Assembly: GCA_013115145.1 (NCBI GenBank)
Contig: JAAPAO010000096.1
Location: 1 to 64,000 of the forward strand
From: Perkinsus chesapeaki
Lineage: Eukaryota > Perkinsozoa > Perkinsida > Perkinsidae
Length of the DNA: 64,000 nucleotides
Reading direction: 5' to 3'
The notes under the pieces were generated by a model that had not been told where the DNA came from, made no database searches, and saw only the letters and a program-made list of their open reading frames with translations. Below are positions 1-56,918 of this stretch, piece by piece (positions within the stretch are counted from its first letter, which is position 1; each line of letters starts with the position of its first letter). Position numbers and translations under genes: made by a program.

Positions 1-381
1 GGGAAGCTTTTAGAGAGGGACTGGCGCTTTTCTCTTTGGTCCAATAGTGGATTGGTCCAAAAATGGGCAAACCTGGTTTTCGTCGTTTTGGGGCGTGCGC
101 TATCTTTAAAGCGCAAAATGGAAGTAGTAATCGATTACTTTGAGCAATTGTACATTTCCAGCTGTCGAACAGCTTTGCCTGGCCTCCCTTGGGGGAACTT
201 GCTCTTGCGGGTAGCTTAAACTCCGACATAAGTCGTCTGCATTTGATTTGCTCGTAGACTTGTGGTTTGATTTCCAGTGGAACGTTCGTGAGTGTTTTGG
301 TGCATCACGTGTGTTCGTTTCTCAAGACGAGTTCCCGTGTGTTGTTGTCAATTCATTTTCATCTAAGACTGGGTCTAATTA
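1..381. other. Non-coding flank before the tandem array
   Basis: I see no supported exon here. The stretch is AT/T-rich in places and ends just before the first signal-peptide ATG of the array. It probably holds the promoter and 5' leader of the first array gene. No TATA-like or other element could be assigned with confidence. Confidence 0.4.
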
Positions 382-2020
382 ATGCATCAACTTATATTAG
401 TATACTACTACTCAGCCGCCTTAGCTGTATCAAATCACATTATCGACATCACAGTAATATCGCCACATTCACGGCAAGCTGTCGCCCCATAGTGCTTTTT
501 CCCAGAAAGTGGTGCCGCGTAAGACTTCAGTGCCACGGTTTGAACATCTCATCGCCCGAACAGACGGTGGCATTCCAGTTCTGAGGGTAGGCTTTCACCC
601 GTTGACTCTGGCTCACTATTGCATTTTACAAGGCCAATGGTCTGGATTATGCTACTCTTGATGACCTTTTCCTCGGGGCTCCGTCAGCTTCGTTCATTGA
701 GGTAGCAGCGCTCAGTCCTTCTAAACAGTAGACGAAGGCGTTTTCAGCCGATAGTGAGTTTCCTCACGGACGGCCGCTCCGTGCGGTTTTCTCGGAAGGA
801 AGGCTTACTGTCGATATCGGAGCTAATTTGCCGTGTAAGTGACATAAAGCAGTACAAGAAGCAGATGGCTGATGATGTTGCATATATCTTTCTGGAACAC
901 TGGACGTAGCATCGAACAACTTACTAGTTCAGCCGCATCCAACTGTTAGGAGTTTCCCGTTGAAGTTCCCTCATTGGAAAAGACACTCGATGAAGAAAGG
1001 ATACGCGATAGAATTAGCAGACGATGATCAGACGGCAGCGCTGAAACTACTTTATATTGGCCTGCTGGGGGAAAGAGCAACCTCCGGTGGATGGCCGGAA
1101 TTTACTGACGTGAAGCGAGCTAGATACGAGAAAGAGATGACGATCGACGAACGTGTTGCTACTCGTGGAACCATTGAAGCTTTCATTGTAGAAAGGCTAT
1201 GTATAGCAGTGGAGGAGGCACAAGTAAGCAAGTTAGGATGAGCTTGGTCATTATCGAGCTCCAGCATACTACAAAGATGGTGATGCTTCGGCAGTTCATC
1301 AAGGATGAAGGTTTTGCGATGAACGCAACTGTTGTGGTAAGTTGAGGATGAGGAACAGATAGACGACACTCTTAAAAGGATTCATGCGCGTGGCAAGCCG
1401 GGAATCTTGGGAAAGCTGGGAATTTATCATAATTTGTTTTTCGACAATCGAAGGCGAGCATAGACTTTATGAAGCACTGGTTTCAGGCGGCACCTCCATT
1501 GAGCCAGAAATACGAAAGAAATCTGAAAGTAGCTGCTCACTAGGAAGGGACAAGTGTTGAGCGGCCTCGGCCTCCTTAGGTCTTTGTATTGTCGCCTAAC
1601 TCACTTTTCAAGCATCGCTTCAAGATGGAAGGATTGGTCGCCAACCGTGGGTCAGCCGAGAAACACAGTGTGACATTTGGTCTTGATAAAAGCAATAGAC
1701 TATTGCTCACTGCTTACGATTGCGGCGGGGAGGATAAAGGTCACGCAATATTACCGTAATTGAAATTGATGAAAGTCGTGTTCTCTTGAGCAGTTCTCGT
1801 TAGGAACATTCCAATAAGCGCATCTCCCGAGCACAGTGAGATGTGGGTTGTAGAGACGGTATCATACTCCCCGCTGAAGCTGAACCCGGCGGCGGCGGCA
1901 ACAGGTGTTTTCACCTTCCTTGAATGGCTTTATTCAACCATGTCGAGTAGCGATGCAAGCTTGGATGCCGCCGATACGGTATTTGTGAGAAACCTGTGCG
2001 AAACGTTACTGAAGCGTTAA
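382..2020 (+). CDS. Array gene 1: secreted two-domain protein of unknown family
   Basis: Function is not recognised. An ATG at 382 opens a short hydrophobic signal peptide (MHQLILVYYYSAALA), then an intron to 505. Spacer exons lie at 506-586 and about 629-702 (ending GAPSASFIE). Domain 1 is exon A 748-905 plus exon B 950-1223; exon B contains ALKLLYIGLLGE and VERLC. A linker exon follows around 1281-1339. Domain 2 is exon A 1613-1755 plus exon B 1804-2020, with FLEWLYSTM and FVRNLC, then TAA. Both A/B junctions are phase-2 introns (44 and 48 nt), as in the seven genes downstream. Each domain has one cysteine in exon A (SELIC, AYDC) and one in exon B. It is closest in sequence to array gene 3: both share FPHW at the start of the first B exon and a GAPxAS spacer exon. 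The signal peptide is short, so the start is the least certain part. Confidence 0.72.
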
Positions 2021-2231
2021 TGAGGGTGTGCACCTTACAGGAGGCATGTACCAAGGATGGTGTTGTAGTTGTTGTTGTTCATCTATCTTGTCAAGATGTG
2101 TCGAGTTTTCTTACGGTTCGTCGATGCATTGTTGTGAGGTCGGGGGCGATAAAGTCCATTTTACGTTGCTACGGTTGCGCGGTAGTTATTGTGGTGTAGT
2201 GTCGTCACCTATCACGGTTATCATTGAAGCT

Positions 2232-4078
2232 ATGAGAACAGCAACTGTCGCCACTTATCTGGCTGCAATGCTCATTGGGCAGTCCACAGCTATCAAGATC
2301 CAGACTGCTAAAAAAAGAGTAACAGAACGTAAGTTTTATAACAATAATTTGCTCAGGTAGAGAAGGCGGTGCTTGAGGCAGCCTCGACAATCACTAAGAG
2401 GCCCGATATGAAGCTCAGGGTGAGACTGCCGCGGCCGAGCTGCAATTCCCTGTGGATGATTTGTCTATCAGATGGATCCGAGGGGAGTCTCAGCAATCAT
2501 GGATGAACTCAAAAATGTGAAAAATAAAGGTTGTTTCGATAATATGTACTCTTAGGACAAACGTAATGAGATATCCGATAGTAAGGGAAATGTCATCTAC
2601 ACGGACTCCCATGGCCCTGGCAACCATTTAAGCGTCGAAGGTATGCTGTATAATGGTGATGGATATGTCTACTATGAACGAAAGAGGTAGGGGCAGCAGA
2701 ATTGGTGGCAACAATTTGGTGAAATACTTATGCGATTTGCAACAACTCGGATCGGTGAGTTCGGTACAGGCTTTAACGTTTTTCATTGGTCAGTATTAAG
2801 CTTGAGAAGGAAGGAGCCTATAATAAGAGAGGAGACCGTGGTGTGAAGGGAAGCACAGCCGAGGCGGAGGTGAAAGACGCGGCCGTGGGAAGTATCTGTT
2901 CTGCGCTCGAGAAGGTAAATGAGATGATCGGTGGCGATGATGTCGGGTAGCTGTTATTATGTCAGACTGAGCCATATATTCTAGCCGAGAAAGAAGATGA
3001 TGGGACAGCTGCCGTATCCGTGAGTACTCAATCATGCAAATTGTGAAATATTAGTCGTAGTCAGAGTACGCATTAAATCGAACCTTGCCATCTTGCATTT
3101 ATCCCTGCGTGGCAGAATGACACTCTGCATGATCGCAAGTTTTGGCGGGATTAGGTGTACTTCTCCCCAGTCAGGCATATCTCCGCTATGTGGTGGTGGC
3201 ATTCCTTATTTTGCAGAGCTTATTATTGAGCCATTGCTCTTTTCAGGGCATTCCCGATAAAATAAGGAAGATACCGGAAAGGCCAGGCACTGATTGGGCC
3301 CCGGGGCCGAATTTCCTAAATGTAAGTCTGCTTGCATACACCACCATTATAGGGAGCCATGTAGCCTCACACAATTGTGTTTATCTGGAATCAAGAAGTC
3401 GGACCTCCGAAGGCGGAGATTCGACGAAAATTTTGCTAGAAAATCGCTCCCCCAGATGGAAGGAGGATTCATGTGACGGAACATCTGACGTCCCTCTACG
3501 ACTTCCTGCATTGTTGTCGCTTTCTGGGTCTGAATTCCGGAAAGGAGAGGTCTCCCGTGTTCGCTTTGCACCAGTGAGTGATCTGTTGTTGTTCCAGACG
3601 GAGTTGAGGCTAGGTGCCTATTCAAGCAGGCTGAATAGCTTTGTGAGGTCATATGATAAGAGTAGTCGGCGTAATCTATTGGCGATATTTGCCACCGTCA
3701 ATGATAAGCTAACCCTCGCCACCCTCTCGTGCGCAAACAGCACTGACGGTCTTAATTCGAGCGAGGTTGTCTTGTAAGAATCAGCTTTCGTCGACGCTTT
3801 AGTGATATTATCCCCTCAGTTACTTTCCTGGCATGTTTCCTGAGTACCCATCTCTTTCCACGTTCGATAAGTTCTCTTACAGCATGAAGAGTGGTGAAAG
3901 CGGAGATAACGTCATAAAGTGGATCTATAATGGCTTAGTCAATAGGATCACGAAGACTGACGGGAGCGCTGTGAAAGAGTTGAAGGCCAAGAGCCTTTCC
4001 GCCGATGCGCTATTCTTAACCCTTCTATGTGATGTGGTTAGTAAGTCCGATGGTATCAAGTTTAACACGAGGGCCTAA
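2232..4078 (+). CDS. Array gene 2: secreted one-domain protein with long charged spacer
   Basis: Function is not recognised. The ATG at 2232 starts a signal peptide (MRTATVATYLAAMLIGQSTA). After an intron a second exon reads VEKAVLEAASTITKRPDMKLR. Between 2.4 and 3.5 kb there are several short, highly charged exons whose edges I resolved only in part. The single domain is exon A 3598-3773 (contains LATLSC) and exon B 3820-4078 (YFPGMFPEY, then VIKWIYNGL and LFLTLLC), joined by a 46-nt phase-2 intron and ending at TAA 4076-4078. Unlike its neighbours it has only one recognisable domain and a spacer of more than 1 kb. Either the first domain was lost or it has diverged beyond recognition. The array context and conserved exon phase make it a family member with good confidence. 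Confidence 0.68.
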
Positions 4079-4345
4079 AGTGAAGCATAATATCGTTTTG
4101 TTTATATTCAACCAATTCATGTTGTTGTGGTTGTTGGTGTGTGTGAGCTAACATGGTCTTGTGTTGCCTATGAGGGGCCTGGATACTATCCAGGAGGCTC
4201 CTCAGACACTTCGTTAAACCACTTGTTGGGAAATGCATTCTAGCAAGTGTCATTATAAGATCGCATGCGCTGAGATCCGCGGTTGAGCAGACTAAACCCC
4301 AACTCTGAACTCCCTCGCACATCTCATAGCTGTTGCAACACTTAC

Positions 4346-6581
4346 ATGCATTTTATCATCTGCGCCTTGTCGGCAGCAGCCATCTTACTGCCTCAAGCCG
4401 AATCCTCGGTAGGAAACTCACGCACCTCTGTAGGAAACTCACGCGAGGTAAAAGCGTGCCATTCGCGATCAGTTCGGTGGAGAAATGATTGTCGTTCAGA
4501 TAGTTATGGCCAGGAGAAACGCAGAAGGTTACCAAGAACGCTTCAAGGTGTGGAATCCTTCGAATGAGAGCCCCATTGTGGGACCTATTCTTGACGTGGT
4601 TTTTGACGCAAAGGCTTTCGGTGATATGATATCCCTGATCTAGAAGCGTTCCTTTGCTCTGCAACTTAAGCTACCAATACACCAACCAGGAAATGTAAAT
4701 GTGAATAACTCCTGTACGTTACGAACTTTCATCTTGACCACAACATTTTGTGTCTTGGGCCGTAATGTGACGCAGCAAGCATCAGTTGTGCAAAACTTGG
4801 CGTTTGGGATGACGGCCTTCACTAGAACTAAGAGACTGTTGTTAGCACGTCACTGCCGTCAAGACTGACCTACCGCCTTTTAAGAACCTCTTTGGATCAA
4901 GCAGCGTATCAAATCTCAAGGTAAGGTTCCTTGCTTTGCTGCAGTTGATTTTTTCGACCAGGCGGGCAGTCTGAGTTCTGAAGAGGTGAATAAGATGTTC
5001 AAAGGGGCTCCTGACGCTTCTCTCATTTCGGTAAGGCTTTGCCAGTACATGAAGATCCAAGCTATCTATTAGTCTTCATATGTGCTGAAGAGTGAAGATG
5101 GGATGGCGAAGCTCACGGTAACTGACAAGCAACTACTCCTGGCTGAACTCGCCTGCTACAATGGGGAAAACGGAGAGACAGAGACTAGAGTCTTTCTGGA
5201 ACCAATTGAGTAGGGCTACGGCGAGAGTCAGATCCCACACATTGCGGTTAATGCTTCGTAGCACATTCCGCGTTGATTTTCCTCACTGGCAAGGCTCTCC
5301 GAAACAAGTACGAATCTCATCCGAAGGAGGTGTGTCAGCCGCCAAAAGAATGCTCTATGCCGGACTACTCGGAAGGCATACCGTTCTCAATGGTCAAATG
5401 GCGTTGCAAGAGCCTAAAGCTCGAAGGTTCATCAAAAACACCGCCTCCAATCCAGCACAGCGCAACCTGACTGCAGTATGGATCGACGAGTTTATAGTAG
5501 GAGCTCTTTGCAAGGACCTCAACCCTACATATGCTGTACGCCATTCCGTTTGTCGTGGTCATGTTTCCCAATATACTTCTAGATCAAAGCTCAGATAACA
5601 GATATCAAGAAAGTTGATGATACGCACACAATTCTGGTGGGTCGTCTGAGAAGCTTTCATGTGCCATGGGCTTTTCAGGTCCCACAAAAATTGTCAGGCT
5701 CAATATTAGATAGAGCCTATGATAGCATTCCACCACCCTCCCAGTTGAAGGTAACATCACCCGTCGGCTCATCTATCAACATGCGTTCAACTAACTCAAG
5801 CGTTAAACTCACTGGAAGCGTGTCGCCGCTTCCACCTTTGTCGTTATGCAGGCCAGGATCAGATGCATGTTTTTTAGATAACACCCGACTCTGATTCTTT
5901 TATCGTCACTGGAACATCGTCCAGAAGCGATGGCTCTGGCCCGGCGTTTGTTGCTTTCAAGGAAACTGTGCAGGAGAACGTGCTCTTCGTCAAATCCGCT
6001 AGTTGCCCAGACCTTGGAGGGATTATGTAAGTTCTTTCATTATTTACCTTTTTCCCGATCATTTCACGCAAGCCACCACATCTGGAAGTGCGATGCCGTG
6101 AACTTGTGGGGCCTTTTTTTATGGGACCTTCTCGTGGCTCCCTCGTGAATTTAACAGCTGCAGAGCTTGATATCGTATCACATTTCTGAGTGACATGGGA
6201 AAATCAATTCCTCGCGGCACTTGAAAGAAGTCTAGCGTCGTTTGCTTATTTGGATGTATGATTGAGTTGATACCCTATTCCTCGGTAACGCAAAGTCGCT
6301 ATGTACTAAGTGCGTCTATCTACTTCTTTCCTTTGCTTTTTCCCCGTAGGGAGCTACCTACGAACTTCGTCGACTTTACGTCCCTCAAGGATATGGAGAC
6401 GGCAGTGTTCAAGATGACTTCTAAGAAACAGATTCCCACGAGTATCTCCTTGCTCTATGTTGGTCTGATGCGCCGCATGGCTGCCGAAGAGAAATACACT
6501 TCTTCGCTTACTGCGAATGATATGCTGATCGATCAGTTATGCGAGTATACCAGAGCCGAATCGGAAGATACTCACTTCTAG
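4346..6581 (+). CDS. Array gene 3: secreted two-domain protein of unknown family
   Basis: Function is not recognised. The ATG at 4346 starts a signal peptide (MHFIICALSAAAILLPQAES), followed by a perfect heptapeptide-like repeat (SVGNSRTSVGNSR). Spacer exons follow to about 5027, including GAPDASLIS just before domain 1. Domain 1 is exon A 5091-5209 (LLLAELAC) plus exon B from 5262 (AAKRMLYAGLLG, FIVGALC). A linker and an LK-ending spacer exon (5669-5750) follow. Domain 2 is exon A 5878-6026 (KSASC) and exon B 6350-6581 (ISLLYVGLM, LIDQLC), ending at TAG. The A/B intron of domain 2 is 323 nt (6027-6349), about seven times longer than the other A/B introns in the array. Domain 1 is closest to domain 1 of array gene 1. 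Confidence 0.72.
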
Positions 6582-6821
6582 ACCAATCGTCTGAGGAGTG
6601 CTCAAAGATGACTTACTTTCATGCTAGATGTTGCTGTGGAGATGATGTTGGAGAAGCTATTAGTTTTCGTGTTATCTTCTAATTCAACCAGTGCAAGTGT
6701 AATTGAAGCCATACTGTCTTCGTAGCTTCTACTGTTTGTTATGCCAACTTTTGCTACCTTCCTCTTGTGTAGACGGTACCATTACAGTGCTTTGTTCAGG
6801 AAAGTGGTTTCACCATTTTAT

Positions 6822-8454
6822 ATGCTTCCTCTTACACGTTCTCTTCTCTGTGTGCTATTCCTCATATATTTTGTCACGGCGAGTACCAGGAGTTACTCAG
6901 ATGCCAACGACGAAGATGAGATAGTAACCAGAGTCAACTTGGCTCATTCGTCATCATTTATCTCCGTAGGGTGATGACGATACTGGAATCGATGAGTTCC
7001 TGGATGAGGCTATTTCTTTACTTCCCGTCAGCGCTATAGATGAGTAATTGTATAATATGATATTCTGTTCCACTTCAGGTTGAAGTGCCGTTCACCAGCT
7101 CTCTAGTGTTCCCATCCGCACAGACAGTAAATTATAACTTCGCATCGCCATATAATCTTGTTAACTTAGGTTGGCATAGAAACGATCTTACAAGGCCTAA
7201 ACATCACCGGGGTATGTATCACTATCCTGTCGTCCAACTAAATCGATCGACTTCTTGCCAGGACAGCGGCATCATCGATAGCGGAGCGCTTTCTGTGACT
7301 TACGGGCATTGCAATTCAAAGAGTCGATGTCTATTCGAACTAAAATGTCATTCGAGGATAAGTCATTTCGAACATGACGGCGCTTCTGCCTTTTACCTCT
7401 TCCCCCGAGGAGCTCCGTAAGCGTCAAGATATACCTTTGTACTTACAATCCTAATATTCTCAGACACGTCGCCTTGGCGAGCGAAGGTGTGCCAGCAACC
7501 GAATCATGTAAAACCGAAGATGGAAAATGCATTCTCTTGAACAGACTATGTAACAATATCAGAAGTGATATCCTGGAGCTCACTAGTTCGGAGGAAAGGG
7601 CGCAAGAATCGGTACTGAACCGTTCCTATTTCGATATTGTTTTCGTGAAACATTAGAGCATCCCCTTCGTTGAGCTCCATGGCACGTTACCTTTGCATGA
7701 GGCCAGCATGACGGTACTTGCATCAGTCCAGAAAAACTCGTATATGTTAGCCTCGTAGTTCATGTCTGAGGTTGTCCCTGACGAGATAGATGATGTAGCT
7801 GAAGAAGGCAACAAGGGAGAGCGGGACCTAGTGGTAATTGAGTATCTACTGAGAAATGGTTCCTATCCGCTCCGTATTTAGGTTAGATTGGTGAGTCTAG
7901 AAGACGGCGGGCATTATTATAGAGTTAAAGGGGCCCCTAATAGTTATTTGGACTTTGATATAGGAAAAGACAACCTCCTTGCGCTCCAGCGTATGAGTTG
8001 TCCTGTAGAAGGTAAAAATAAAGGAAATAAACACAAAGATACCAAATTCGCTCCACCAGAAAAGTGAGTATCGTGCGCATGTGTGGCAAGGTAGACATCT
8101 TTCCTCAGAACCTTCCTTTGGGAGACTTCATTTTCCGACCACATTGATAAAAGAATACTCCTCAGTATCGTTTTACCGACGAAGGCCAAGCTTCCATATG
8201 TTCGAACCGCACTGACATGGCTCGCGCTAGGATTCTCGCCGGAGTCGTCGGGAGAGTCGAGCAGCGCCGAGCCTGCCGACGAGGCAACAGCATCCTACTT
8301 CATGAAGAATCAGGGCAGACTCGGCCGGGTACTCATAGACAATATATGTTCACGAAAACAACCCCAAGCGAAGCAGAAAAGCTCCCTACGCCTTCTCAAA
8401 ACCAAAACGACTGCCAAAAGATCCTCATCAAAGCAATCTTTAATCAAGTTGTAG
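6822..8454 (+). CDS. Array gene 4: secreted two-domain protein with basic tail
   Basis: Function is not recognised. The ATG at 6822 begins a strong signal peptide (MLPLTRSLLCVLFLIYFVTA), then an acidic spacer (SDANDEDEI, GDDDTGIDEF). Domain 1 is exon A 7262-7416 (LFELKC, AFYLFPRGAP) plus exon B 7464-7611. That exon B is short and lacks the LKWLYxGL part but keeps LLNRLC. A linker exon (IPFVELHGT, about 7657-7710) leads to a second spacer. Domain 2 is exon A about 7882-8063 (RMSCPVE) plus exon B 8109-8454 (ALTWLALGF, LIDNIC). The protein ends in a strongly basic Lys/Arg/Ser tail and stops at TAG 8452-8454. Both A/B introns are phase 2 (47 and 45 nt). The model can be read through with consistent frames from start to stop, so this is one of the best-supported members. 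Confidence 0.78.
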
Positions 8455-8692
8455 AATCTCTTCTATTATGCAACCGATGTCCTTAACAGCTGTAGCTGTT
8501 ACCTGCTTCAACTTCTTGTGTTGTGACATGTCTGGGATGAGGGGGAATCTAAGTAGTCGAATCTGGAGTAGAGAAGAATGATGTTAAGTATACCATTGAT
8601 GGGCTATCTAACGCGTCCTAATACATCTGGGCTATCACCTCACCGATCTGACCTCATATGAATCAACTACTTTGTACACCATGTGAGCCAAA

Positions 8693-10968
8693 ATGTTTTC
8701 TCTAATTGGATTGACTATATTAATATTGTCCGTAATAGTTACACTTGTTCTTATCCCTGTGATAAATGCGTTTTATTCTCTTCCCATCATCCCTCGCTTT
8801 GCTCACCCACAGCGCAACTCCCGCCGGAGACCAAGAGACCACCTCAGTTGATGTAAGTGATAGCAGCGAGTGAAGTGATTTCATTTCGAGTTTTTTTTTC
8901 AAGTTTGATGAGATTATCAAGGGCCTCGAGGATCAAAGCCGACAACTTGAAGATGAGGTGAGTCGTTATTCAACGCTTGCGGTTGGTTAACGATTTTTCG
9001 TAAATACCAAAGCTCTCGTCATCTCGTGTTATCTCCTTGACATCACCGAATACCTTTGAAGTTCGAGGCTCATAGGGACAGTGTATTACCCAAGCCTAGA
9101 GTCAACCGCAGATGGGATATTCCTAATAGTCAACCCGATTCCACTGGTACTCATTGCCCTGGATGAACTCATCACCCATGCACTCGTCGGAAATGACCTG
9201 TATGGGTGGTGGAGAATATGAATAAGCGCACTGCCGTGGAGTACACCACTCGTTTATACAACCTCCACCCATGGCTGATGTGGCATGGAGGAGCTGTTGG
9301 CATCTCAGATCAGCAAGCTTCCGAAGGCTTCTGAAGGAAGAAACGTCGCAAAGGTAAGTGGCTTATGATTGTACTGTGGCGATATGGTGTACCTTAGGGA
9401 TCGGATAAAACTGAAACATCTAATCTGGTTCCTCCGCCTAAGGTAAGAATGTTGCAACCATTGGAAACAGGTGAATGATTTAGCCTAAGAGAACGTACAC
9501 GACTTATACTGTGGGCGCTGCAGCCGAGGTGAGCCTTTTCATTGGAGGTATCATATTATTCCATTCCAGGGCCTGTATGATATTGATTCAGCGTCGAACC
9601 ATGCCAAATTTTCTCACCGTGACAGTGAGGGCCGCCCTATGCTTTCTGAGATTAAGTGTGCCTCACGCGTAACGTATGGTGGGTATGAAAGTGCTTCCTA
9701 CTACTTTCCCGATGGCTACCCGTAAGTATCTTAGACGTCTCATTATTCTGCTAATTTTGGTTGATCAGATTGACTGGGTTATGTGATCCTACAAAGACTT
9801 TAAATTCATGTCTCCTACCAAATGCTAGCGCGGAACTAGCTCAGATCATTTGTCCACGTATGGTCGAGTTAGTCGACGAAATTGTTGAAAAAAGAGCGGA
9901 GGAGAAGACTCCCGAGGGGCTGAATAAGACTGAAGTTAGGAAAGAAACGGTAGGCCCATTTCTAAAAAGTATTGTAGCTCTCACGACCTTTGTGCCTTTT
10001 CAGGATCATCCTTTCTTTGAGACCCACAATTTGAAAGAAATGGGCAGGGAAATAGATATCACTGTAAATTCAGCCACAAGGCTGATTAAGCCTTCAATGT
10101 TGTTGTCAGTTTATAACAAAGGAGTTGCCCAGGAATGGTGATTTCACTTTTGGAAGTACACCTCAGACAGCCCGGAACTTGACAGTGAGAATATGAAACG
10201 TTGAGCCTTGAGTACGAAGAGATTATTAGCGTCTGTTAGGTCAAGCTTGTGCGAGCAGCCGAAGAGGTGAAATACAGGGTGCAAGACTTGGCGGATAGGA
10301 GCGCCGATTTCAAAATTGATGACGGACGTCTCACACTTCGCACGCTTATATGCCCAAAGGAGGAGAAAGTGACAGCTAAAAAACCGAACAGGAGTAGATT
10401 GCAAAGCGCGATATCGAAGTTACCGAAGTTCTTACGTAAGAAGCAAGATACGACGCAGACTTCGAGCGTTGAGATGTTCGCTGATGAAACTAGGTAAGGC
10501 ATTGAATGCAGCAGGCTGGTTTAGTGATCTACTTTCAGCGCTACTTGTGTCTTCAGATCATTTCCTGCTAAGTGGCCCGACCTACCTACGCTATCTGGAG
10601 TCGACAGTGCCACCGTTACGCTCTCTCCGAGTGCTACATATGACCACGTGGTCGGCGCCTTAAAGTGGCTGCTCCTAGGAATGGTGAATCATGCCACTAC
10701 AAATACGCCTAAAGATCAAAGTACAAGCCAAGCGAAATCTCCATACGACTCCATGAAACCGAATGATATTTTCGTCCATTACCTTTGCCGTTATATGTCA
10801 AAGAAGAGGGCAACAGCTAAACTCTTGGAAAGTCCATCATCGCCCCAAGTTGTCGAGCCTACCACCCAAACAGGGACTGGAATCCCGGACCACCTGAACC
10901 GCGCCTACCAAACCTTGCATGTCAGGGGGAGGAAGAAAACGACAGACGATAGGAAGGCGAGCATATAG
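8693..10968 (+). CDS. Array gene 5: secreted two-domain protein with basic tail
   Basis: Function is not recognised. The ATG at 8693 opens a very hydrophobic segment (MFSLIGLTILILSVIVTLVL) taken as the signal peptide; the first splice junction after it is unresolved. Spacer exons include FDEIIKGLEDQSRQLEDE. Domain 1 is exon A 9570-9721 (SEIKCASR, SYYFPDGYP) plus exon B 9769-9949, a divergent B with ELAQIICPRMVELV. A linker (DHPFFETHNLKEMG) and a spacer (to about 10183) follow. Domain 2 is exon A 10240-10493 (RTLICPKEEK, with an inserted basic stretch) plus exon B 10557-10968 (GALKWLLLGM, FVHYLC), ending RGRKKTTDDRKASI before the stop. The A/B introns are phase 2, 47 and 63 nt. The gene lies about 240 bp after array gene 4 and 220 bp before array gene 6. 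Confidence 0.75.
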
Positions 10969-11185
10969 GTAGATGCCATCTGTGAAGGTGACATCATCGT
11001 TATCTCATTCTTTTATTTATTCTCCGATATTCGATTTATAAATTTATTCTTCTTTCTCATGTGTGATGTTCTCATGATGATGTTATGTGCATTTACAACG
11101 AGTCGTTGAATTTGTCAATAGCCTTCGTTTAACCATTATGGCCACTATCCACTATCATTGAGCTTTCACGTTATTCTCCATCTTA

Positions 11186-13864
11186 ATGCGTAAATACCAT
11201 ATCCTGCTACTTGTCGCTGTGTTAGCTATAGCGAAGAGCTCAACGAGCCAACGAGATGAGGAGGTGAGTTATCCCAGTCAGTGCTATTTAGTATAAGTAT
11301 CTTCCTGTGCCAGCAGAGGCCAATACCCCCGCCACGAAAGAATAAAGAGAACGATCAAGTGAGGCCCGGGCTGGGCGCGTGTAACTGACCTATTAGCATG
11401 GTCAGCTGTGTTCCGACTCTTCCTCGGTAAAGCGGCGCTGCATGATACCATACTTGAGGAAGCTAGCCTGGATTCAAATTGGCCATCGAATCATTATTCC
11501 CTCAGGCTCGGGTGGACTCTGTGCGTCATCGTCGTGATCCTCCTCCTCGCCCAAACGCCGTAAGATATTTTCCATTTGCTTTGCCGATCACTGGGTGTCT
11601 TGTTCAGACGCCGACGCGGTTGCAAGGTTCTACAGCAACTGACACTAAGGCGAGGATGCTTGGTTCGAGGAAAATACATCATCTATTTTCAGGGCTCTGG
11701 AGGACGGCACGGGGTTGAGGGGATTACTCAGCAAACTATCGCTGTATGTTGTGATGATATTGTTGTCGCTTCGATCCTCGATTGTTATTGTTTAGCAGGG
11801 AGACGTTGAAGGAAATGGAGCTGTTAGGAAAGCACCCGCCAAGGTATGTAGCTAAGTTAATATACACGTAACTAACGTGACTTAAGCTACTTGTTGTTGT
11901 TGCAGCCACCAAGATCGTTTATATCTGGACAGAGCGCCGAAAGCGGCTCCCTGAGCGGTGCGGGAAAGGTAGGTCTCATAGGCCATATAGGCGCGATGTG
12001 TGTGCATTTGTGTATCAGGAGACCACGCAAATGAAGACGATGAAGAAACGAGTGAGTTTACCGCCGATTAGAAATATCTACCTCTGAACTGTCATGCAAC
12101 CTAAGCAGAGGCCGTTCGGAGGCCGAGACGCAGCTCCTGGCCATCATTTGATGCTTTCCTAACGTTCTAGGCCCCGGCTGTCCCAGACGACCGGTACAAG
12201 GACTTCAAGTCACTGCTTGCCGAAGGGGAGACTAATATCCTCGATGTATGTGATGATCCTTAGACTAGTTTATTGGCTTGATGCTTATTTTCCTCAGAGT
12301 GCAAAAGCTATCACCACTGGAGCGGGTGATATCGGGAGCATCGCGAATGTACACATGCCATATCGCCATATCGGGATAACGCTTGTTACTCTAGGAACAC
12401 AACATGATCGTTTCTGACGAAGGAAAAATTATTTTCCAACCAAGTCATGAAGGAGAGACGTTGATGATAACAGAAATGAAATGCCCAACCAGGGATAGAT
12501 ACAAACTACCCAGTTTCCCCCACCCGGAGCACTCCTACTATATATTTCCGGAAGGCCTTTCGTGAGTCTTTCTCCACTCCAAATTTTTACCTTTATTATT
12601 CAGGAAGTTTCGACTGAGCTTTGGGATGTTTAAAAGTGCTACCAGAGATGACACTTATGAAATTAAGACGTCGTCCAGGCTGGAAGACTCCTTGAAGATA
12701 CTCTACATGGGGCTCTCATGGGATAGAGCTGTTCCGGCGAAAGCCGTCCATGCCCCCGCTCTCCGAGCTGCTCGGATCACTGATAGACTGTGCCATTTCG
12801 TACAGAGTGATGTTGAAGCACTTGTAAAGAATGATAAAGATAAAGTCGAAGGTGGAGTCAAGATGTTGAAGTCGGATGACAATGAGGTGAGCATGGTCTG
12901 TTAGTCCTCATTCGTATGCGAAGCAAAAAACGGAGATACTCGTGTTGCGCCAGCTAGACAGCTGATAGAGCTGTATTGAGCCATATCCTCTCCAGGCTAT
13001 ACCTTTCGCAGAACTGCATGGAACGGAACCTCTGAAGGATTCGCCTATTAAATTCACGGTAAGTATTCTTCCCATCAGAGCCTGTCGTGAGTTGTCTCAG
13101 TTCATATCGAGTACCGCACCAAACCTTAACTCCCCTATTATCGTCGATGATAAAGTTTTACAGCTTAATGTTAATGATTTGAAGGTAGGTCAGGGGACGG
13201 AGATCTGATTACTCTACTTATGGCTACGAGAGTTGAGGCAAACGTCTCTAGGTGAGAAACGAAATATATGCCATAGTCCGCCGGTATATTATAGTTTATG
13301 AAATCTCATTATATTACCCGTTCAGGTCACCCAAGTAGGTCGCGCATTCTACGAAGTCCAGTCTGAAGATTTCAAAGTGCGCTTTGAGGCCCATGCTAAA
13401 TATTTCCGTCTTAAGGAAATGAAATGTCCGGGCCGCTGGTACTCAGATAAACTAGACTCTCCTACCGATTTCGTCTTCAAGGAGGGGCTCAGGTAGCGCC
13501 AATCGTTCTAAATGTTATCTCGAGCATTGCTGGTATCTTCAGCGATTTTTTGGTAAAATTTCAAGGCTCCGATTTACTGGGGGAAGTCACTAAAGCCACA
13601 TTTGACTTGCCCGATGCTACGGAGGCCGAAGTGGCCCTCAAATGGCTATTGCGAGTTATCTCAGCAGAGGCCTCTTCAGTATTGGAGACCATGGAGGGAA
13701 CTAATAAATCTGAATTCTTGATGAGATCCACAACCCCAGAGGGATTCCTCATCCGCAACCTTTGTCGCCAGAAGGGCTCTTCAGAACATAAGAAGGACAC
13801 TTCCAGTCGTCCTGTTTCGAAGGTTAAAAGCGTCCTTAAGAGGGTGAAGCCGACTCCCAAGTGA
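11186..13864 (+). CDS. Array gene 6: secreted two-domain protein, many micro-exons
   Basis: Function is not recognised. The ATG at 11186 begins a signal peptide (MRKYHILLLVAVLAIAKSS). The spacer from 11.3 to 12.3 kb is a run of at least eight micro-exons of 30-80 nt in phase 0, rich in Pro, Arg and Gly. Domain 1 is exon A 12395-12561 (TEMKCPTRD, SYYIFPEGLS) plus exon B 12604-12886 (DSLKILYMGLSWD, ITDRLC). A linker exon reads AIPFAELHGTEPLKD. Domain 2 is exon A 13326-13492 (KEMKCPGRW) plus exon B 13543-13864 (VALKWLLRVI, FLIRNLC), ending in a basic tail (KSVLKRVKPTPK) and TGA. The A/B introns are phase 2 (42 and 50 nt). The frames join cleanly through both domains, and this gene best defines the family consensus. 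Confidence 0.8.
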
Positions 13865-13978
13865 TAATCTATGATCTGATGAAGATGTTTATCAATAGCT
13901 GGTGTTCATGTACAACGGTGTTCTGCTTCATTCTCTATTGTGTTGTTAATCACTCACTTTTTCCCTGCAAGTACATCG

Positions 13979-14067
13979 CGCATTCTACATTCTATCTAGC
14001 CCTATGATAGGGCCAGATAGAATATAGAATGCACGATAGATAGGGCCCCTATGATAGGGGCCCTATC
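13979..14067. repeat. Two adjacent long hairpins between array genes 6 and 7
   Basis: The first inverted repeat spans about 13980-14032: arms of about 26 bp beginning GCATTCTA..., with two mismatches that would be G-U pairs in RNA. The second, 14039-14067, is a perfect palindrome with arms GATAGGGCCCCTAT. They begin about 115 bp after the stop codon of array gene 6 and end about 90 bp before the ATG of array gene 7. They could form a 3' RNA structure, a cruciform, or be the remains of a small non-autonomous element. Confidence 0.75.
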
Positions 14068-14154
14068 CATCAACAACCCCATTCAAAATGCATGAGCCAG
14101 GTATTCAATAAACAGAAGTGCGCGGCATTGTATCATTCAGTTCTACCCACTGTT

Positions 14155-17100
14155 ATGCCTATCAAGTTTCACTTTCTCTCCCTTGCTGCTCTCACGAGTA
14201 CAAGCATCTCTCTAGCTAGTGTAGGCGGCCCCGACGGAGTCAACCCTTAGTCGTCCTTCAGTTGCTCAGCGGGTTGTCATCTAGTTCAAGTTTCAACGAA
14301 GATTTTGGTAGAGCGTATAAGAAGGTGAGATAACCTCCCTTCTAAATCTCCTGCCTTCTGTATGAACAGGTTACTCATCGCGATTGGGAAGGGTCGAAAT
14401 CAAGTGCGTCTACGCGTGAGGGAGACACACCAGTAAGCTTCTCCACAAGCAGGTTTACTTCAGTACAGGGCTCAGAGTAGACAGTGATCGCTCTACCAAG
14501 CTCGGTTCTTACTAGAATGCGAACGACTGTGACCATTCGCATTATCACTTTTATATCATTATGCTCAGGTAAATCGTCGCAGACGTCACTCTTCTGCTGA
14601 GATTTTCCCGGTATCTTATTCCAGCACTAAGCTTGAGCCTGATCTGTCGTTCAGAAACCGTCAAAGAAAGATCGTCCATTTGAGAGAGTGCAGAGCTTCG
14701 GTGGTTTCGACAAAGAGGAAAGCGTATCTCATAAAATGGACTCTATGCTTCTCATTTTTGCTGTAGATGGAAGCTGAAGTCCCACACACTACGGATGAAG
14801 ATTGGGAACATGCATTTGATACATCCCGCCAAGTGAGCAGTCATGCCATAGTATTATGCTGTGGGATTATAGTACAGTGCGGAAGCTTGGACTAGTAGAG
14901 AAGTGTGCCTTTACCGATAAGACTTTGTACCTATTCAAAGACTTGCTCTCTAGGCGGCTTAATCACATCAGTGTTTAACCGGTGTGAAGGAGCTACCGCT
15001 AACTCCGTACCGCACTTGCTGCAACCCGTCACGGATGTTCAGCACTGTTCCGTATCTTTCTTGATCCATTTTTTTAATTATCATCTGGACATCAATGGCT
15101 TTCAGGCAAGCGAGAATAACGTGGGCCCCGGCAACTTGTTGACACTTGCTGGCAGCAAGTCCCCTCTTCCGCCAGACATTGCGGAGTTTGACCCATTACA
15201 AGGAAAGGTATGCTGCTTACGACTATTATGTATACCGTCTCTTCGTCAGACCGACGGAGATCAAAACGGTTTGACGGCGCATGAGGAATCGGGATACTCA
15301 GCCCAAGTGCGTTTGCAATAAGTTCCTTTTACCAAACTCGGCGTACCTTTCTTTGGTATTCAATTCAGCAGGCTACAGTACGGTAAAGCAGAGATTCTCT
15401 TACCTTCTCCTCGACCACGGTTTCCGCCATCAGCTTACTTCCAGCCTGGGATCAGATTCGTCCTTCAGTTGGTTGAAAATTATGACTTACATTCAGTTCA
15501 TGAGTTTGACTGAGCATGATATACTCGTAACCTCCATTTCATCCAAAACGCTCCCCCGGGGACTTATGAGCATTGTAGCTCAGAGATTATCACTTTGTCC
15601 CTCTGAAGGAAACGTTGTCAACTCTGGTACAAACGAAATTTGGTCCAATAGATTCGTAGCCTTATGTCGACGACTTCCTACTAGAAAGTTCCTTGCCTAG
15701 TCTGAGGGGGCTCCTTCTATCGCAATTGAAAAGATGTTTGAAACGACAGGAATTATTAAACTTGAGAATAGTGGAATACGGAAGGTTAGGGGCATAGATT
15801 TAACGAATACGTCATACTAGCAATGTGATAATATAATGGCTTTTTGTTATAAGAAAGGGTATCCTTGTTGACATCATCTGCTACTCCACTATCGGAGTGA
15901 TTTCCACTAGATGTGCTCGCCAGAATAGTTTCTAAGTCGCTAGTTTGTGCTCACCTTATTCAGAGTACCGGTGACTCGATCCTCAATACTGCTATAATAG
16001 ATAGCGACACTACTGTTACCAGCAGCGGGAGCGGCAGTCACACGAGCAATGTAGAGGATTCTCAGCTGCATATGAGGCAGTGATTGTCATTCACAGGCTC
16101 CCAAGCGACACGAAAGCCAAACGGCGCAACCGCCTTTTGATCAACTCTTGGTAAAGGATGAATACAATATGTTGAAGGTTAGAATAAGCAGAGTTCGCAT
16201 CATTTTCAAGTTTCAGAACGATGTCTTTGGAAGACCAAACCTCATCGGAGGGGAAGGCGAACGGCTTGTTTACCCGGTAGGCCTCAACGCGTGTTACTTG
16301 GCTCTTTCCATTTCTCATAATCTTGAAAAATCAATGTGTCTTAGGAACCCACGTGGACCACACATACTGGCAATTTCATGATCGAGTTTTTCACACCGTC
16401 ATGGTCCCAGGGGCAGCTGGCAATCAGGCAGTTAAGCTGCAAGGCCCGGTTAGATTATCATAATGACCACTTCGCTGGATATGTGTTCCCTAAAGGCCTA
16501 CAGTAGCAAAGGAGCGCCAGCTTGTCACATCCATCTTTCCTTCCTTCAGTCGTTTCAATATGAGGTTCCCTGGATTCCCTGGAGCCCCAAAGGAGCATCG
16601 CCTTTATGGCATACAACACACTGGTCTCCTATCAGACTCTGTCAGACTCCTCTACATAGGGACAGCAGAACCCGTCGAGGGTCCCCCCCAAGACGTCAGG
16701 GCTAGCGCCACTCTACTATATCCAATTACAGTAGCTTTATGCAAGATGATTCAAGATGACATCACTGCTCACGAGCAGGATGGAGACTATAGGATACTCA
16801 AGGTATCATATGGCGATATCTGTATTATATAGCCTTCTCTTAGGATGTTCCATATATCGAAGCGCATAAAAGCATAACAGGAGACGGTGGAGCAGAGATA
16901 ACAGTAAGGTCCACTCTGACCCGCACTCATTATTGAATTGCCCTTCAATCTAGCTGGTATCAAAGGCGCTGCCCGGACCGGATGATTTTCCCAATAAAGT
17001 TGACTCCAGTGTTCCTGAGCCCGAAACTTTAAAGGTAGAAAGAACCCAATGTGCAAAAACGGAGATGCTCATATGGTATCTTCTGCATTCAGGTCGAAGT

Positions 17101-17706
17101 CAAGAAGCGTAAAAAAGGAAATTCAGTCTACACAGTCAAAGACAAGGGCAGCTTCATTTCTTTCGTGTCCGAAAAAGATCGGCTTAGATTCAACGCAATG
17201 TCCTGTCCTGGCAAGTTGCTCGCCAGTAAGATTTCCTACGAGAAGCTCGAAACCAAGCCAGCGTAGAAATTGAGCTTTCTGGGGTGTGAAATGTTTGCAT
17301 GCCTTTTAGGTACATCTCCGCCCAGTGGAGAAGAACGTTCCTTAAAGACTATAATGTGCTTCCTTTCGTGATGAAGGAAAGTGCCTCCGACGAGGAAGTT
17401 ATTAGCGCCTTGCGATGGGTATACTCTGGTCTTCCGTTCCCTCACTCTGGTACGGGTTACATTCCCGGGTCTAAAAGGAAACCTCCCCCGAAGTCCAGTG
17501 CTAACAAGCTGTTTGTGAAGATTCTTTGCTCGAATCCACCGGGAAAATCTGGGGAGAAGAAGAAGAGCAAAGGATCAAAGATTAAGAAGGAAAAGCTACA
17601 GAAGGAGAAAAAGGGGGATAAAAAAGAGAAAAAACCGAGAGATGCCCAAGGTGGAGGCAAAGGGTTTATGAAAGGCCTTTTCACACGAAAGAAGACAGCC
17701 TCATAA
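14155..17706 (+). CDS. Array gene 7: largest array member, lysine-rich tail
   Basis: Function is not recognised. The ATG at 14155 begins a signal peptide (MPIKFHFLSLAALTSTSISLA). A Ser- and charge-rich spacer of short exons follows to about 15.3 kb. Between 15.3 and 15.7 kb is a poorly resolved region that may be a degenerate domain: its frames are interrupted, yet it keeps an RFVALC-like end. A well-formed domain is exon A 16345-16502 (IRQLSC, GYVFPKGLQ) plus exon B 16550-16802 (DSVRLLYIGTAE, TVALC). A linker exon (DVPYIEAHKS) leads to the last domain, exon A 17093-17262 (FNAMSCPGK) plus exon B 17310-17706 (SALRWVYSGLP, LFVKILC). The protein ends in a lysine-rich tail of about 60 residues and stops before 17707. 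The A/B introns are phase 2, both 47 nt. The gene could in fact be two genes, but I found no second signal peptide. Confidence 0.68.
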
Positions 17707-17936
17707 ATCATACGGTCTTGGCCTAGTGAATTCAGTACAGGATTTCAGAGCTGCGACTCTAACTTACCAAAATTTATTCTATTTGAAGTATCTATAAACT
17801 GGCTCATAAAAAGCATGCGTGTCAGCGGTGTGTATGTTAGACTCAATTCACTCAAGTTGTTGTCCTTGTTAATAAAGGGTTGGTGCTGCTTACGAAGACT
17901 CGAACCAACACTATAGGTTGAGAAATCGAAACACAC

Positions 17937-17990
17937 TTGCTCGCTCTGCTGAGCAGAGCGAGCAACACAAAAGAGCAGAGTCTGCTCTTT
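17937..17990. repeat. Two perfect short-loop hairpins between array genes 7 and 8
   Basis: 17937-17965 is TTGCTCGCTCTGCT, a single G, then its exact reverse complement. 17970-17990 is AAAGAGCAGA, a single G, then its exact reverse complement. The two hairpins share the GAGCAGA core. They lie where the signal peptide exon of array gene 8 would be expected. Confidence 0.8.
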
Positions 17991-18192
17991 CGTGTTCGAA
18001 GCAGAGGGCAATTAGCTGTATGCTTTAGAGCGTTCTTTGTGAATGCTTTCATGTATAGACTTCACCAAAGAGCAACGTTCGATGACGCAACGGACAATAT
18101 CGCTGTATTTCCGTCCATTCTCAACCCACTCGATTTCCTTGGAAGGCTATTCAACATTTCTAGCAAGTTTTACCATTTTTAACTTCTTGCAG

Positions 18193-19552
18193 GATACTAA
18201 CCGGATAGAACATGAGAACTACAAAGCTGTCTTCACTGACGGGGGCGAACTGGCGCTTGCAGAGCTAATTTGCTTACATCCCACCTTGATAAACTATCAG
18301 ACGGTGTTTAGCTTCCCAGAAGGCTTATCGTAATAAATCTCTTAGATAGGCACGCAGATAGCAGGCTCGAATCTCAGGAGATTCAAGCTCGACATGGCGA
18401 AGCTGGCTGGCGCACCCCGAACGCCACAAGTCTATACCATAAAACGTTCACCTTCTATACAGGAATCTTACGGACTCCTCCTTACCGGTCTGGAGTATTT
18501 CACGAAAGAAAGCAACATGCCTAAAACAGCTGAAGAAGTTATCTTGAAAGGATTGTGCAAGATGGTCGAGGAAGACGTCAGTCTCATGATCGAGAAAGGA
18601 GCAAGTTTGCATTCTGAGGCGACAGGATCCCATGTTTTGCAGCGGCCAGAGAGCAGAAAAGTCATCAATTGGGTTCATCCCATTGCTTAGTTCTCTCCTT
18701 TAGACTATTCCATATTTAAGGCTCACCAAGTTTGCCTTGACAAATACGTCGGCCATTGTTGATGTACCAACCATGCTTAGAATATGCTAAGCTTCGATTT
18801 TGGTCTTCTGCCATGTCAGATGGTATCCGATGAAGCACCAATCGACCTTTCTTTCGCAACTGATTTCGCGTTACCCAGTCCCAGTAGCCTAAAGGTAAGT
18901 TTCATGACTTCTACAAGTTCTGGCAGTATTGCGTCGTTGCTACGGGGCCGTTCATGAGACAGATTTTTCCCGCAATCTTTGAAGGTGCTTGTCATTAGGT
19001 TGCGCCGTCTTCTACTTCGAAAACCTACAAGATTTCTCACGAAGGCAACTGGTTGAAGTTCGGTCTCCGCGATGACTTCATCGTCCTTAAATCTTACCAA
19101 TGCCCTATGGAACCCGGGGAGTCTCACGAGACGTCTCGAATGAAAGAATTCAAGGATAGAAAACGGCCCTTGTAGTGTGATCCCAAGTTCCTCACATACA
19201 CACACTTGTCATTCTTGTCAGTTTATTCGAGACTCGTTGGATGCCATCAGATGCCTTGTCTGATGTAACACTCACATCTTTCCGTATACCCCAAAGTCTC
19301 CAACTTAATATGGCATTTGTTAACGCCTACTTCAAGTGGTTTTATGTTGGGGTGGCCTTGAATTCATTGGAAGGTAGACCCTTCCCACGAAGTTATGCTA
19401 ATCAAGAATATTTGACGACTGCTACCGATGCGAATGACCTATTTATTCGCAACGTGTGCTATTATGCGCGTTTGCGGGTAACGGAATCTAGTGCTCCAGT
19501 CCAAGCTCTAAGGAAGTGCAAATCATGCTCATCTCTTAACGCATTGGTATGA
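18193..19552 (+). CDS. Array gene 8: two-domain protein, 5' end missing or unresolved
   Basis: Function is not recognised. Domain 1 is exon A 18193-18329 (LAELIC, FSFPEGLS) plus exon B 18378-18660 (SYGLLLTGLEYF, ILKGLC). A linker exon (TIPYLRLTKF) and a spacer ending SSLK follow. Domain 2 is exon A 18999-19171 (LKSYQCPME) plus exon B 19222-19552 (AYFKWFYVGVA, LFIRNVC), then a stop. The A/B introns are phase 2 (48 and 50 nt). A possible upstream exon around 18080-18110 reads TFDDATDNIA. No signal peptide was found between the stop of array gene 7 and this point. The gene may be 5' truncated, or its first exon may be too diverged to see. The interval also contains the hairpin pair at 17937-17990. 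Confidence 0.68.
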
Positions 19553-28600: not shown

Positions 28601-29331
28601 GGTCTCAAAAGGAGAAAGGACTTATCAATATGATGTTGAGATCCAACAAACCAAACCACCTTAACCTATCCACGAGGGCCTGCCTACGGCCATAATACTT
28701 ATGTTGAAGAACAACGGTCATAGTTCGGCCCGAGTAAAGCACGCGAGCGCTTGAGCACAAAAACACATGAAGTGTCACAGAGACAAAGACAGAGTATTGT
28801 TAACAGATGAGCCCACTATTGATTATGTGGTCATCACGGCTCCCAGATGTGAGAACCTCACGGGTGAATCACTTACTAGGAGTGACGCAACGTTTCTGTC
28901 CATCCTCTCCGCGAAGAAGAACGAGCTTCCGTCATTGACAAAACCATTGCCAGATTTCGGCAGCAGATGACCATACTGTTCCCGCAAATAACTAACAATA
29001 AATCCACTCACAAAGGGAAGAAGACAAACACGGCCTACTTGCCACTCTCCCAGTTCTCAGCAAGACCGATTCTAGACAACGCCGCGCCGTACTTGGAAAA
29101 AACAGGCTCGTCGAACTCCTCTAGTTGAGCCTATCAACGAAGCGATTTGATCATGCCTTCAGCAGCCTAACAGATCCGTGCCTTCATATTGGGACAGAGA
29201 TAAGGGACCGGTGCGTTAGGCGCTCGGTTGCCATGCCTGGCGACTACGATAACCTTCTTCAGCGTCTCCTTGCCGGACGCTCTCGAAAACAGCGCTGAGC
29301 ATAGCCAAAGAAGGAGATGAAGGTTCAACAT
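25644..29331 (-). CDS. Membrane-anchored histidine acid phosphatase
   Basis: Histidine acid phosphatases hydrolyse phosphomonoesters, usually in lysosomes or at the cell surface. The ATG at 29331 begins a signal peptide (MLNLHLLLWLCSALFSRASG). The catalytic motif RHGNRAP lies at 29218-29238. Further exons fit the family in order: EEFDEPVFSKYGAALSRIGL, YLREQYGHLLP, MDRNVASLL, SLIQGLYPEGTGQPGYLKSR with VPIMTTM, and AACGVDMTSF. Late exons read LNHRELMMAIAKMLEI, where HRE probably takes the place of the proton-donor HD/HAE motif, and LPAGSMFVFE. The last exon encodes a hydrophobic segment with a run of isoleucines (ILLFIIIIIIIVLCVLG), a likely C-terminal membrane anchor, before the stop at 25644-25646. 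Several exon borders, notably between the first two exons, do not fit simple GT-AG rules and need transcript data. Confidence 0.82.
25731..25750. repeat. GAT trinucleotide microsatellite inside a coding exon
   Basis: This is a pure GAT repeat on the + strand. Read on the - strand it is an ATC repeat that encodes the isoleucine run in the predicted membrane anchor of the acid phosphatase. Length changes would lengthen or shorten the hydrophobic segment without breaking the frame. Confidence 0.85.
27234..27264. repeat. Short perfect hairpin in an acid phosphatase intron
   Basis: The arms TGGATGCCGCT and AGCGGCATCCA flank a 9-nt loop. The hairpin lies between late exons of the acid phosphatase gene, in sequence I read as intronic. 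Confidence 0.7.
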
Positions 29332-29626
29332 CGACCAAGACGGGAATCTAAAACCTGTCGAGTGAGATCGATATGATACCATCGGAACGCAAGTCGATAA
29401 AAAGGAATGAACGCCAATAGGCAGCACTTCAATGAACTTATGAGAGTCGATTAAATAATAATAGGACAAACTGAGGCAAATTAACTTAGAATATTGGATA
29501 GACGAATCCGTCCGGCGCTTGACCTGCGTCACTGCGCCATAAAATAGAAAAATATGCGAAACAGAAGCTACAATGTTAAAAGCAAAAGTACATATGAAAT
29601 CGTTGGAGTGCTCGCGTGCCATCATA

Positions 29627-56175: not shown

Positions 56176-56918
56176 ATGATAGCCCACATCATCACCGTTC
56201 TTAGTATCATTGGCCGTCTTATTGCAGGAGTTGACGTCGAGCTCTACTATGAAAGCCTGTGCCCATTTTGTCAAGACTTTATCACTGAGGACCTCTACTG
56301 TGTTATGAACCAGCCTGATTTGGAGAAGCACATCAATCTAACTTTTGTTCCCTATGGGAATGCGGAGTAAGCTGGTCCTCTCCACCTGATGTGAGCTCTA
56401 CCGTTTCTTAGTATCAATGAAACAACTAAGACCATCACTTGCCAACATGGAGAAGACGAATGTCATTTCAATTTTTATGAGGGTTGCATGATTGCCAAGG
56501 GAGGACAGGATCAGCTCCACACTTTTAGGGCTGTTTCTGCACTTGAGGGTAGTGAAAAACTAACAGACGATGCTGCTGAACACGGTAAGAGTGACGCTTG
56601 CCTGCCGCAGTCATCAGCATGGATTGATTTCAGCATGCAAGACGTTTGGTCTTAATTTTGATGCTATTACAGCTTGCAGGAACTCTGACCAAGCCTACGA
56701 ATTGCAGAAGAGATTCGCCGAGAGTAAGCCGGTTCCCACACTGCTCCCAATTGCTTCGTCCAAATCATTGGAGTTGTCTGACATGTGATTGTCTATCAGT
56801 GACCGAAGAAGCAAGACGAAACTTCACGGAGCAATATGTTCCATGGATCGTCATCAATGGAGAACACATCGATGGCGATGACTTCGCAAATATCCTATGC
56901 AAGGCTTTACGTGAGTAA
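56176..56918 (+). CDS. GILT-type lysosomal thiol reductase
   Basis: GILT enzymes reduce protein disulfides in acidic lysosomes. Four exons join cleanly: 56176-56366, 56412-56584, 56634-56723 and 56800-56918. The ATG at 56176 gives a signal peptide (MIAHIITVLSIIGRLIAG), and the mature protein starts VDVELYYESLCPFC. The CPFC redox site lies at 56259-56270. The GILT signature CQHGxxECxxNxxxxC is complete at the start of exon 2 (CQHGEDECHFNFYEGC). Later landmarks are ACKTFGLNFDAITAC and VPWIVINGEH, as in the family. The length of about 190 residues is close to mature GILT domains. All motifs are intact, so it is probably an active reductase in the endolysosomal or secretory route. Confidence 0.93.

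What the first reader, a model, noticed from the sequence alone, without database searches (positions are those of the whole stretch)
382..19552. Eight-gene tandem array of an apparently undescribed secreted modular protein family
Eight co-oriented genes of about 1.4-3.6 kb, mostly 210-290 bp apart, share one design: signal peptide, a charged micro-exon spacer, then one to three copies of a two-exon domain. I count 15 well-formed domain copies plus one degenerate copy. Overall residue identity between copies is low, yet exon order, the phase-2 intron between exons A and B, a PxxExHGT-like linker exon and an LK-ending spacer exon are kept. I do not recognise the domain. Preserved architecture with strong sequence divergence is what rapidly evolving surface or effector families look like; that role is inference.
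Basis: partly seen in the sequence, partly recalled or inferred. Interest (0 to 1): 0.87.

Follow-up and report, generated by a model that had tools for sequence, protein, structure and literature searches.

The report
Orphan secreted two-domain gene array
A row of eight neighbouring genes in a mollusc parasite appears to encode soluble, probably secreted proteins, each built from two copies of a domain that matches no described family, on exons whose reading frames would let whole domains be duplicated or skipped but not halves.

Summary
The window is Perkinsus chesapeaki. Between 382 and 19552 lie eight co-oriented genes; I find 16 copies of a two-exon (A+B) domain, two per gene. As modelled, 16/16 A/B introns are phase 2 and 23/23 module-boundary introns phase 0; 13 and 17 of these are in automated models, the rest were set otherwise. 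Public protein FOL47_011245 equals the second part of gene 8. Copies share 11-29% or less identity, carry a Cys in exon A (15/16) and B (16/16), and have saturated third codon positions. First- and second-position domains are distinct types, so a two-domain gene was duplicated. No other relative was found in Pfam, PDB sequences or the protein database. In the own genome every match below E 0.1 lies in this array. 'Surface' is not supported (no anchor in 8/8 two-domain models); 'rapidly evolving' is unproven. Best reading: soluble secretory-pathway binding modules, function inferred. Fold tests could not run.

The parts
382..2020 (+). gene 1; domain 1a exons A 748-905, B 950-1223; linker exon 1265-1336; domain 1b exons A 1580-1755, B 1804-2020
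2232..4078 (+). gene 2; degenerate domain 2a A 2556-2686 (no Cys), short B 2794-2914; linker 2966-3019; spacer 3247-3321; domain 2b A 3598-3773, B 3820-4078
   Evidence: 2a rests on position and phase
4346..6581 (+). gene 3; domain 3a A 5073-5209, B 5262-5535; spacers 5583-5636, 5679-5750; domain 3b A 5878-6026, B 6350-6581 (323-nt A/B gap as modelled)
6822..8454 (+). gene 4; domain 4a A 7262-7416, short B 7464-7611; linker 7657-7713; spacer 7759-7833; domain 4b A 7882-8063, B 8109-8454
   Evidence: 4a fails the leave-one-out test
8766..10968 (+). gene 5; domain 5a A 9570-9721, short B 9769-9949; linker 10004-10063; spacer 10110-10184; domain 5b A 10240-10493, B 10557-10968
11186..13864 (+). 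gene 6; domain 6a A 12395-12561, B 12604-12886; linker 12996-13058; spacer 13101-13184; domain 6b A 13326-13492, B 13543-13864
14155..17706 (+). gene 7; domain 7b A 16345-16502, B 16550-16802; linker 16844-16903; spacer 16954-17034; domain 7c A 17093-17262, B 17310-17706
18193..19552 (+). gene 8 (first exon not found); domain 8a A 18193-18329, B 18378-18660; linker 18704-18763; spacer 18820-18894; domain 8b A 18999-19171, B 19222-19552
   Evidence: second part identical to public protein FOL47_011245 (P0005)

Best explanation
A tandemly duplicated family of soluble secretory-pathway proteins. Each is an N-terminal signal, a run of short spacer segments, then two copies of one domain of roughly 110-130 residues (first-position type a, second-position type b) joined by a linker and a spacer exon. 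Shown from sequence: the domain copies, the exon layout as modelled, the two domain types, and no match elsewhere in the own genome below E 0.1. Inferred: the two conserved cysteines pair across exons A and B in an oxidising compartment, the proteins leave the cell unanchored, and the paired domains act as divergent binding modules (ligand or inhibitor type) outside the parasite, the paralogues giving a small repertoire. Because modules are bounded by phase-0 introns and only the A/B junction is phase 2, whole spacers and whole domains can be duplicated or lost in frame, but half a domain cannot.
For: 16/16 A/B introns phase 2 and 23/23 boundaries phase 0 in the final models, of which 13 and 17 are in automated models, against mixed phases (12 phase 0, 11 phase 1, 15 phase 2) in 13 crude gene predictions elsewhere in the window; leave-one-out recovery; hydrophobic N-termini in 7 of 8; no transmembrane segment, GPI-type tail or KDEL-type end in 8 of 8 two-domain models; Cys in A in 15/16 and in B in 16/16 copies, exactly 1+1 in 12 of 16; a and b types separate (0 of 5,000 permutations for 16 copies, p 0.001 for the 13 with full-length B); codon positions 1 and 2 conserved above random pairs, position 3 hardly; public annotation gives the same exons for the second part of gene 8.
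Against: No transcript or protein evidence. Signal peptides judged by hydropathy only, with starts partly chosen for it. No structure. Gene 8 has no recognised signal. Exons before the first domain are uncertain: over all 111 introns of the free models in the array, 69 are phase 0, 17 phase 1, 25 phase 2. Nine of 39 modelled introns are 104-323 bp and may hide exons. The excess at codon positions 1 and 2 is inflated because the alignment was made on amino acids. Similarity does not fall with distance along the array (p 0.21 and 0.37), so a simple neighbour-by-neighbour history is not seen. No ligand is known.
Confidence: 0.42

Rival explanations
1. Structural or matrix proteins of a Perkinsus life stage (zoosporangium or hypnospore wall, mucus), secreted by the same route but not acting on hosts.
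For: Soluble secretory character, paired Cys and basic ends in genes 4-8 (net charge +4 to +9 over the last 30 residues) fit matrix proteins equally; nothing found ties the array to hosts.
Against: Low identity between copies is unusual for wall repeats (recalled); the only tandem repeat listed inside 382-19552 is a short one at 4404-4444, outside the domain exons.
Confidence: 0.25
2. A divergent form of the alveolate IMP2_N (immune mapped protein) fold, which in Toxoplasma TgSABP1 binds sialic acid.
For: Lead from recall: alveolate, similar size, a strand-rich part then helices, an FPxG-like stretch. TgSABP1 carries IMP2_N, is surface-located and binds sialic acid (PMC12210739: passages and Discussion section read).
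Against: No PF18590 match in 11 of 11 domain copies scanned or in 4 further proteins; no PDB sequence match for the alignment and only an unrelated one at E 0.84 for the consensus. PF18590 found nothing in the own genome, but rang in none of the 14 control genomes either, so that search says little.
Confidence: 0.08
3. A decaying array: old duplicates, several no longer functional.
For: Degenerate 2a, short B in 2a, 4a, 5a; gene 8 lacks a recognised first exon; only gene 8 surfaced as a public protein.
Against: Protein-level pattern kept while third positions are saturated. The 8 two-domain models are open with GT/AG joints, but the modelling asked for that, so it weighs little.
Confidence: 0.15

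Closest known systems
FOL47_011245, hypothetical protein, Perkinsus chesapeaki (P0005)
   Same: It is gene 8 from inside domain 8a on: 260 residues, identical to the end of my final model.
   Different: Begins inside domain 8a and is unnamed, so it does not show the two-domain or array design.
Schistosoma micro-exon genes (MEG)
   Same: Signal peptide, short exons mostly a multiple of three, secreted products (PMC10526429: start of abstract, passages).
   Different: MEG introns are given there as 100 to almost 5000 bp; here 30 of 39 modelled introns are 41-63 bp. The passages I saw describe no repeated globular domain. No homology implied or tested.
Tandem gene families of Plasmodium (SERA; P. 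vivax MSP3)
   Same: Clustered or head-to-tail related genes at one locus (PMC7132891 and PMC3662707: starts of abstracts only).
   Different: Different domains; SERA has a papain-like protease domain, and no Pfam domain was found here.
IMP2_N domain (PF18590), e.g. TgSABP1, PfIMP2 (PDB 5LG9)
   Same: Alveolate domain of similar size (89 profile positions), reported to bind sialic acid (PMC12210739).
   Different: No sequence match to the profile; fold untested.

Membership tests
IMP2_N (PF18590) | match to the curated profile | tested here: not met
   0 of 11 domain copies (E up to 5) and 0 of 4 proteins (E up to 10); HMMER filters drop most matches above E 0.1; 5 of the 16 copies were not scanned as A+B
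IMP2_N (PF18590) | fold like PDB 5LG9 | not testable with these tools
   predictor busy, then switched off
Schistosome-type micro-exon genes | short exons a multiple of three after a signal peptide | tested here: inconclusive
   boundaries between domains 23/23 phase 0 as modelled, 17 of them in automated models; exons before the first domain are uncertain
Schistosome-type micro-exon genes | alternative splicing of those exons | not testable with these tools
   no transcripts available
Schistosome-type micro-exon genes | long introns (100 to almost 5000 bp) | tested here: not met
   30 of 39 modelled introns are 41-63 bp; the other nine are 104-323 bp
Membrane- or GPI-anchored surface antigen family | transmembrane segment or hydrophobic C-terminal signal | tested here: not met
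   highest 19-residue mean hydropathy 0.91-1.42 in 8 of 8 two-domain models; gene 2 has a 13-residue stretch at 1.91 within its last 30, the domain's own last helix region followed by a polar end; parts before the first domain not tested
Membrane- or GPI-anchored surface antigen family | tandem gene cluster | tested here: met
   eight co-oriented genes, 211-311 bp apart where measured, six gaps
Any Pfam-A family | profile match | tested here: not met
   the only listing was DUF3701 at E 0.068, below its cut-off, in the stretch before exon B of 3a and out of the gene's frame

The most novel reading that the evidence does not exclude
The phase layout is a working cassette system: modules are phase 0-0 and each domain is locked by an internal phase-2 intron, so alternative splicing of spacers and whole A+B pairs yields many in-frame secreted variants per gene while never producing half domains. 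That would be a protist counterpart of micro-exon gene diversity, built on a new disulphide-linked domain so far seen only in P. chesapeaki.
Probability: 0.13. Interest if true: 0.78.

Novelty: new variant of a known kind. Interest (0 to 1): 0.5.

Why it matters
Perkinsus parasites harm oysters and clams. This gives a defined and, as far as the searches reached, mostly unannotated candidate secreted family with exon coordinates, two domain types and a conserved cysteine pair, ready for a structure, transcript and secretome test. If the exon-phase rule holds in transcripts, it also offers a way to recover such families where a standard annotation shows only part of one gene.

Tried and rejected
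Third-domain copies in genes 6 and 7: no profile match. A weak own-genome match on contig C387 (E 0.25) was fetched and rejected: best profile E-values there 0.28 (A) and 0.75 (B). Matches on C720 (E 1.2) and C184 (E 2.5) were not fetched. Contig C203 shares exactly 73 bp with the window start: in its fetched 19.9 kb the best profile E-value is 0.097, so I read it as a shared repeat or assembly branch, not as a continuation of the array. The rest of contig C881 (64001-79733) gave no match above the decoys. Bacterial/archaeal and viral contig scans with P0005 found no relative. Rate tests were not attempted: third positions are saturated and no orthologue was found. A profile-profile comparison with IMP2_N was not possible: no member sequence at hand. 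Limits of the negative database results: needed shared 5-residue words and a length within 0.55-1.75 of the query, and scored only the best 7,994 and 7,999 candidates; the control gene on the same contig did find P. chesapeaki and P. olseni proteins. Own-genome searches score few candidates (4 to 10 each), so distant clusters are not excluded.
Full report
What the window is. My model of a gene at 50.2-51.3 kb is 100% identical, over the 82% of it that is covered, to FOL47_011251 of Perkinsus chesapeaki, on a 79,733-bp contig. The window is bases 1-64000 of contig C881, also 79,733 bp, of an assembly of 35,393,606 bases in 884 contigs. The array starts 381 bases from a contig end and may be cut there.

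Checking the observation. Iterated profiles of exons A and B, run over six frames of all 64 kb, place the copies on the + strand between 769 and 19471 (one A match at 37187 entered through the iteration). A codon-and-splice dynamic programme was run without anchors and then with the exon frames rewarded but phase free; remaining joints were set by hand. The final two-domain models have 39 introns: 16 of 16 A/B introns are phase 2, 23 of 23 others phase 0. Of these, 11 and 14 stand exactly so, and 13 and 17; the other 3 and 6 do not. GT/AG ends and open frames were required by the modelling and are no evidence. Thirteen crude gene predictions elsewhere in the window have mixed phases: 12 phase 0, 11 phase 1, 15 phase 2. 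With those frequencies 23/23 and 16/16 would be about 3e-12 and 3e-7, but paralogues are not independent and some joints were chosen by hand, so the figures only say that the layout is not random. Over all 111 introns of the models, including the uncertain parts before the first domain, 69 are phase 0, 17 phase 1 and 25 phase 2.

Leave-one-out profiles beat all 2,695 decoys for exon A in 13 of 16 and for exon B in 11 of 16 copies; 2a and 4a are not supported by this test. The public protein FOL47_011245 equals the end of my final gene 8. Three of its four joints were in my model before I saw it; the fourth (A8b/B8b) differed by one codon in the same phase and was then taken from it.

Anatomy. 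Genes 1-7 begin with hydrophobic N-termini (best 11-residue means 1.56 to 3.45; on the opposite strand 16 of 138 chance ORFs reach 1.9, five of our seven do), though several starts were picked by eye for that look. Between the domains lie a linker exon (PxxExH in genes 4-7, HGT in genes 4 and 6, not in genes 1 and 3) and a spacer exon, ending LK in 4 of 7 genes. Exon A has a Cys in 15 of 16 copies (not 2a) and exon B in 16 of 16; 12 copies have exactly one in each, 2a 0+1, 4a 3+3, 5a 1+3, 8b 1+3. In 8 of 8 two-domain models no transmembrane segment, GPI-type tail or KDEL-type end is seen; gene 2 has a moderately hydrophobic 13-residue stretch (1.91) near its end, inside the domain; the last 30 residues of genes 4-8 carry +4 to +9 net charge.

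History. Within-type similarity (a with a, b with b) exceeds between-type similarity (0 of 5,000 permutations for all 16; p 0.001 for the 13 with full-length B; one alignment, first 150 residues per copy). So the unit duplicated was most likely a two-domain gene. Similarity does not decline significantly with distance along the array (p 0.21 for a, 0.37 for b). In aligned codons, identity above random pairs is 0.095, 0.162 and 0.013 at positions 1, 2 and 3: synonymous change is saturated while the protein pattern persists. This is why I do not accept 'rapidly evolving' as shown.

Relatives. Pfam: none above cut-off. PDB sequences: none for the alignment of 11 copies, one unrelated listing at E 0.84 for the consensus. 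Protein database of 5.8 billion: none for gene 6, only FOL47_011245 for the eight-gene profile. Own genome: consensus query, 10 of 10 matches in the array; type-a consensus, 11 of 12 in the array and one elsewhere at E 1.2; type-b consensus, 8 of 9 in the array and one elsewhere at E 2.5; gene queries, one outside match at E 0.25, rejected. Identity between copies is low: 15-25% to the first of 11 aligned domain copies.

Mechanism. I commit to soluble, probably exported, disulphide-linked binding modules working in pairs. The sequence shows the domain pair, the cysteines and the lack of an anchor. Export, the bond and binding are inferred. Matrix or wall protein is the strongest rival. The IMP2_N lead came from recall; the sequence test is negative and the fold test could not be run.

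Literature. Searches on Perkinsus with gene-family, genome, multigene or surface-family and secretome terms list no paper that, by title and start of abstract, describes this array. Only the listed rows were seen (20, 18, 12, 12, 12), the 12 rows do not mention Perkinsus, and subscription papers are not held, so this is no proof that it is unpublished. Introns of P. marinus genes are given as 39-1622 bp, mostly under 100 bp (PMC3101222, passages read), which agrees with 30 of 39 modelled introns.

Noticed in passing
window 13975-14037 with 14035-14071; 17937-17965 with 17964-17996; 61600-61630 with 61638-61692: Twin near-perfect palindromes with 1-nt loops lie back to back in two intergenic gaps of the array and once outside it: 6 of the 8 such palindromes found in the 64 kb are in pairs; two shuffles gave 2 and 0 palindromes. 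Five other fetched loci gave three, not back to back. Resembles double-hairpin elements (recalled name).
   Followed up: partly
window 1-73: Identical 73 bp at the end of contig C203, then the sequences part: repeat or assembly branch point at the array edge.
   Followed up: partly
window 50178-51312 (+) and 52676-53794 (-): Inverted pair of genes matching FOL47_011251 and FOL47_011252 (the latter named chitinase by a source), with a third P. chesapeaki protein and a 39% identical P. olseni one.
   Followed up: partly
window 56176-56788 (+); 62133-62893 (-); 29170-29742 (-): By eye from translations only: a GILT-like thiol reductase, a PIG-N/phosphodiesterase-like gene and an acid-phosphatase-like start.
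   Followed up: no
window 36547-36757: A 39-bp tandem repeat (2.9 copies, 100% matches) runs into a 97-base stretch of N.
   Followed up: no
window 382-17706: Only gene 8 surfaced as a public protein in two searches limited by length and shared words, so genes 1-7 may be unannotated or differently modelled.
   Followed up: partly
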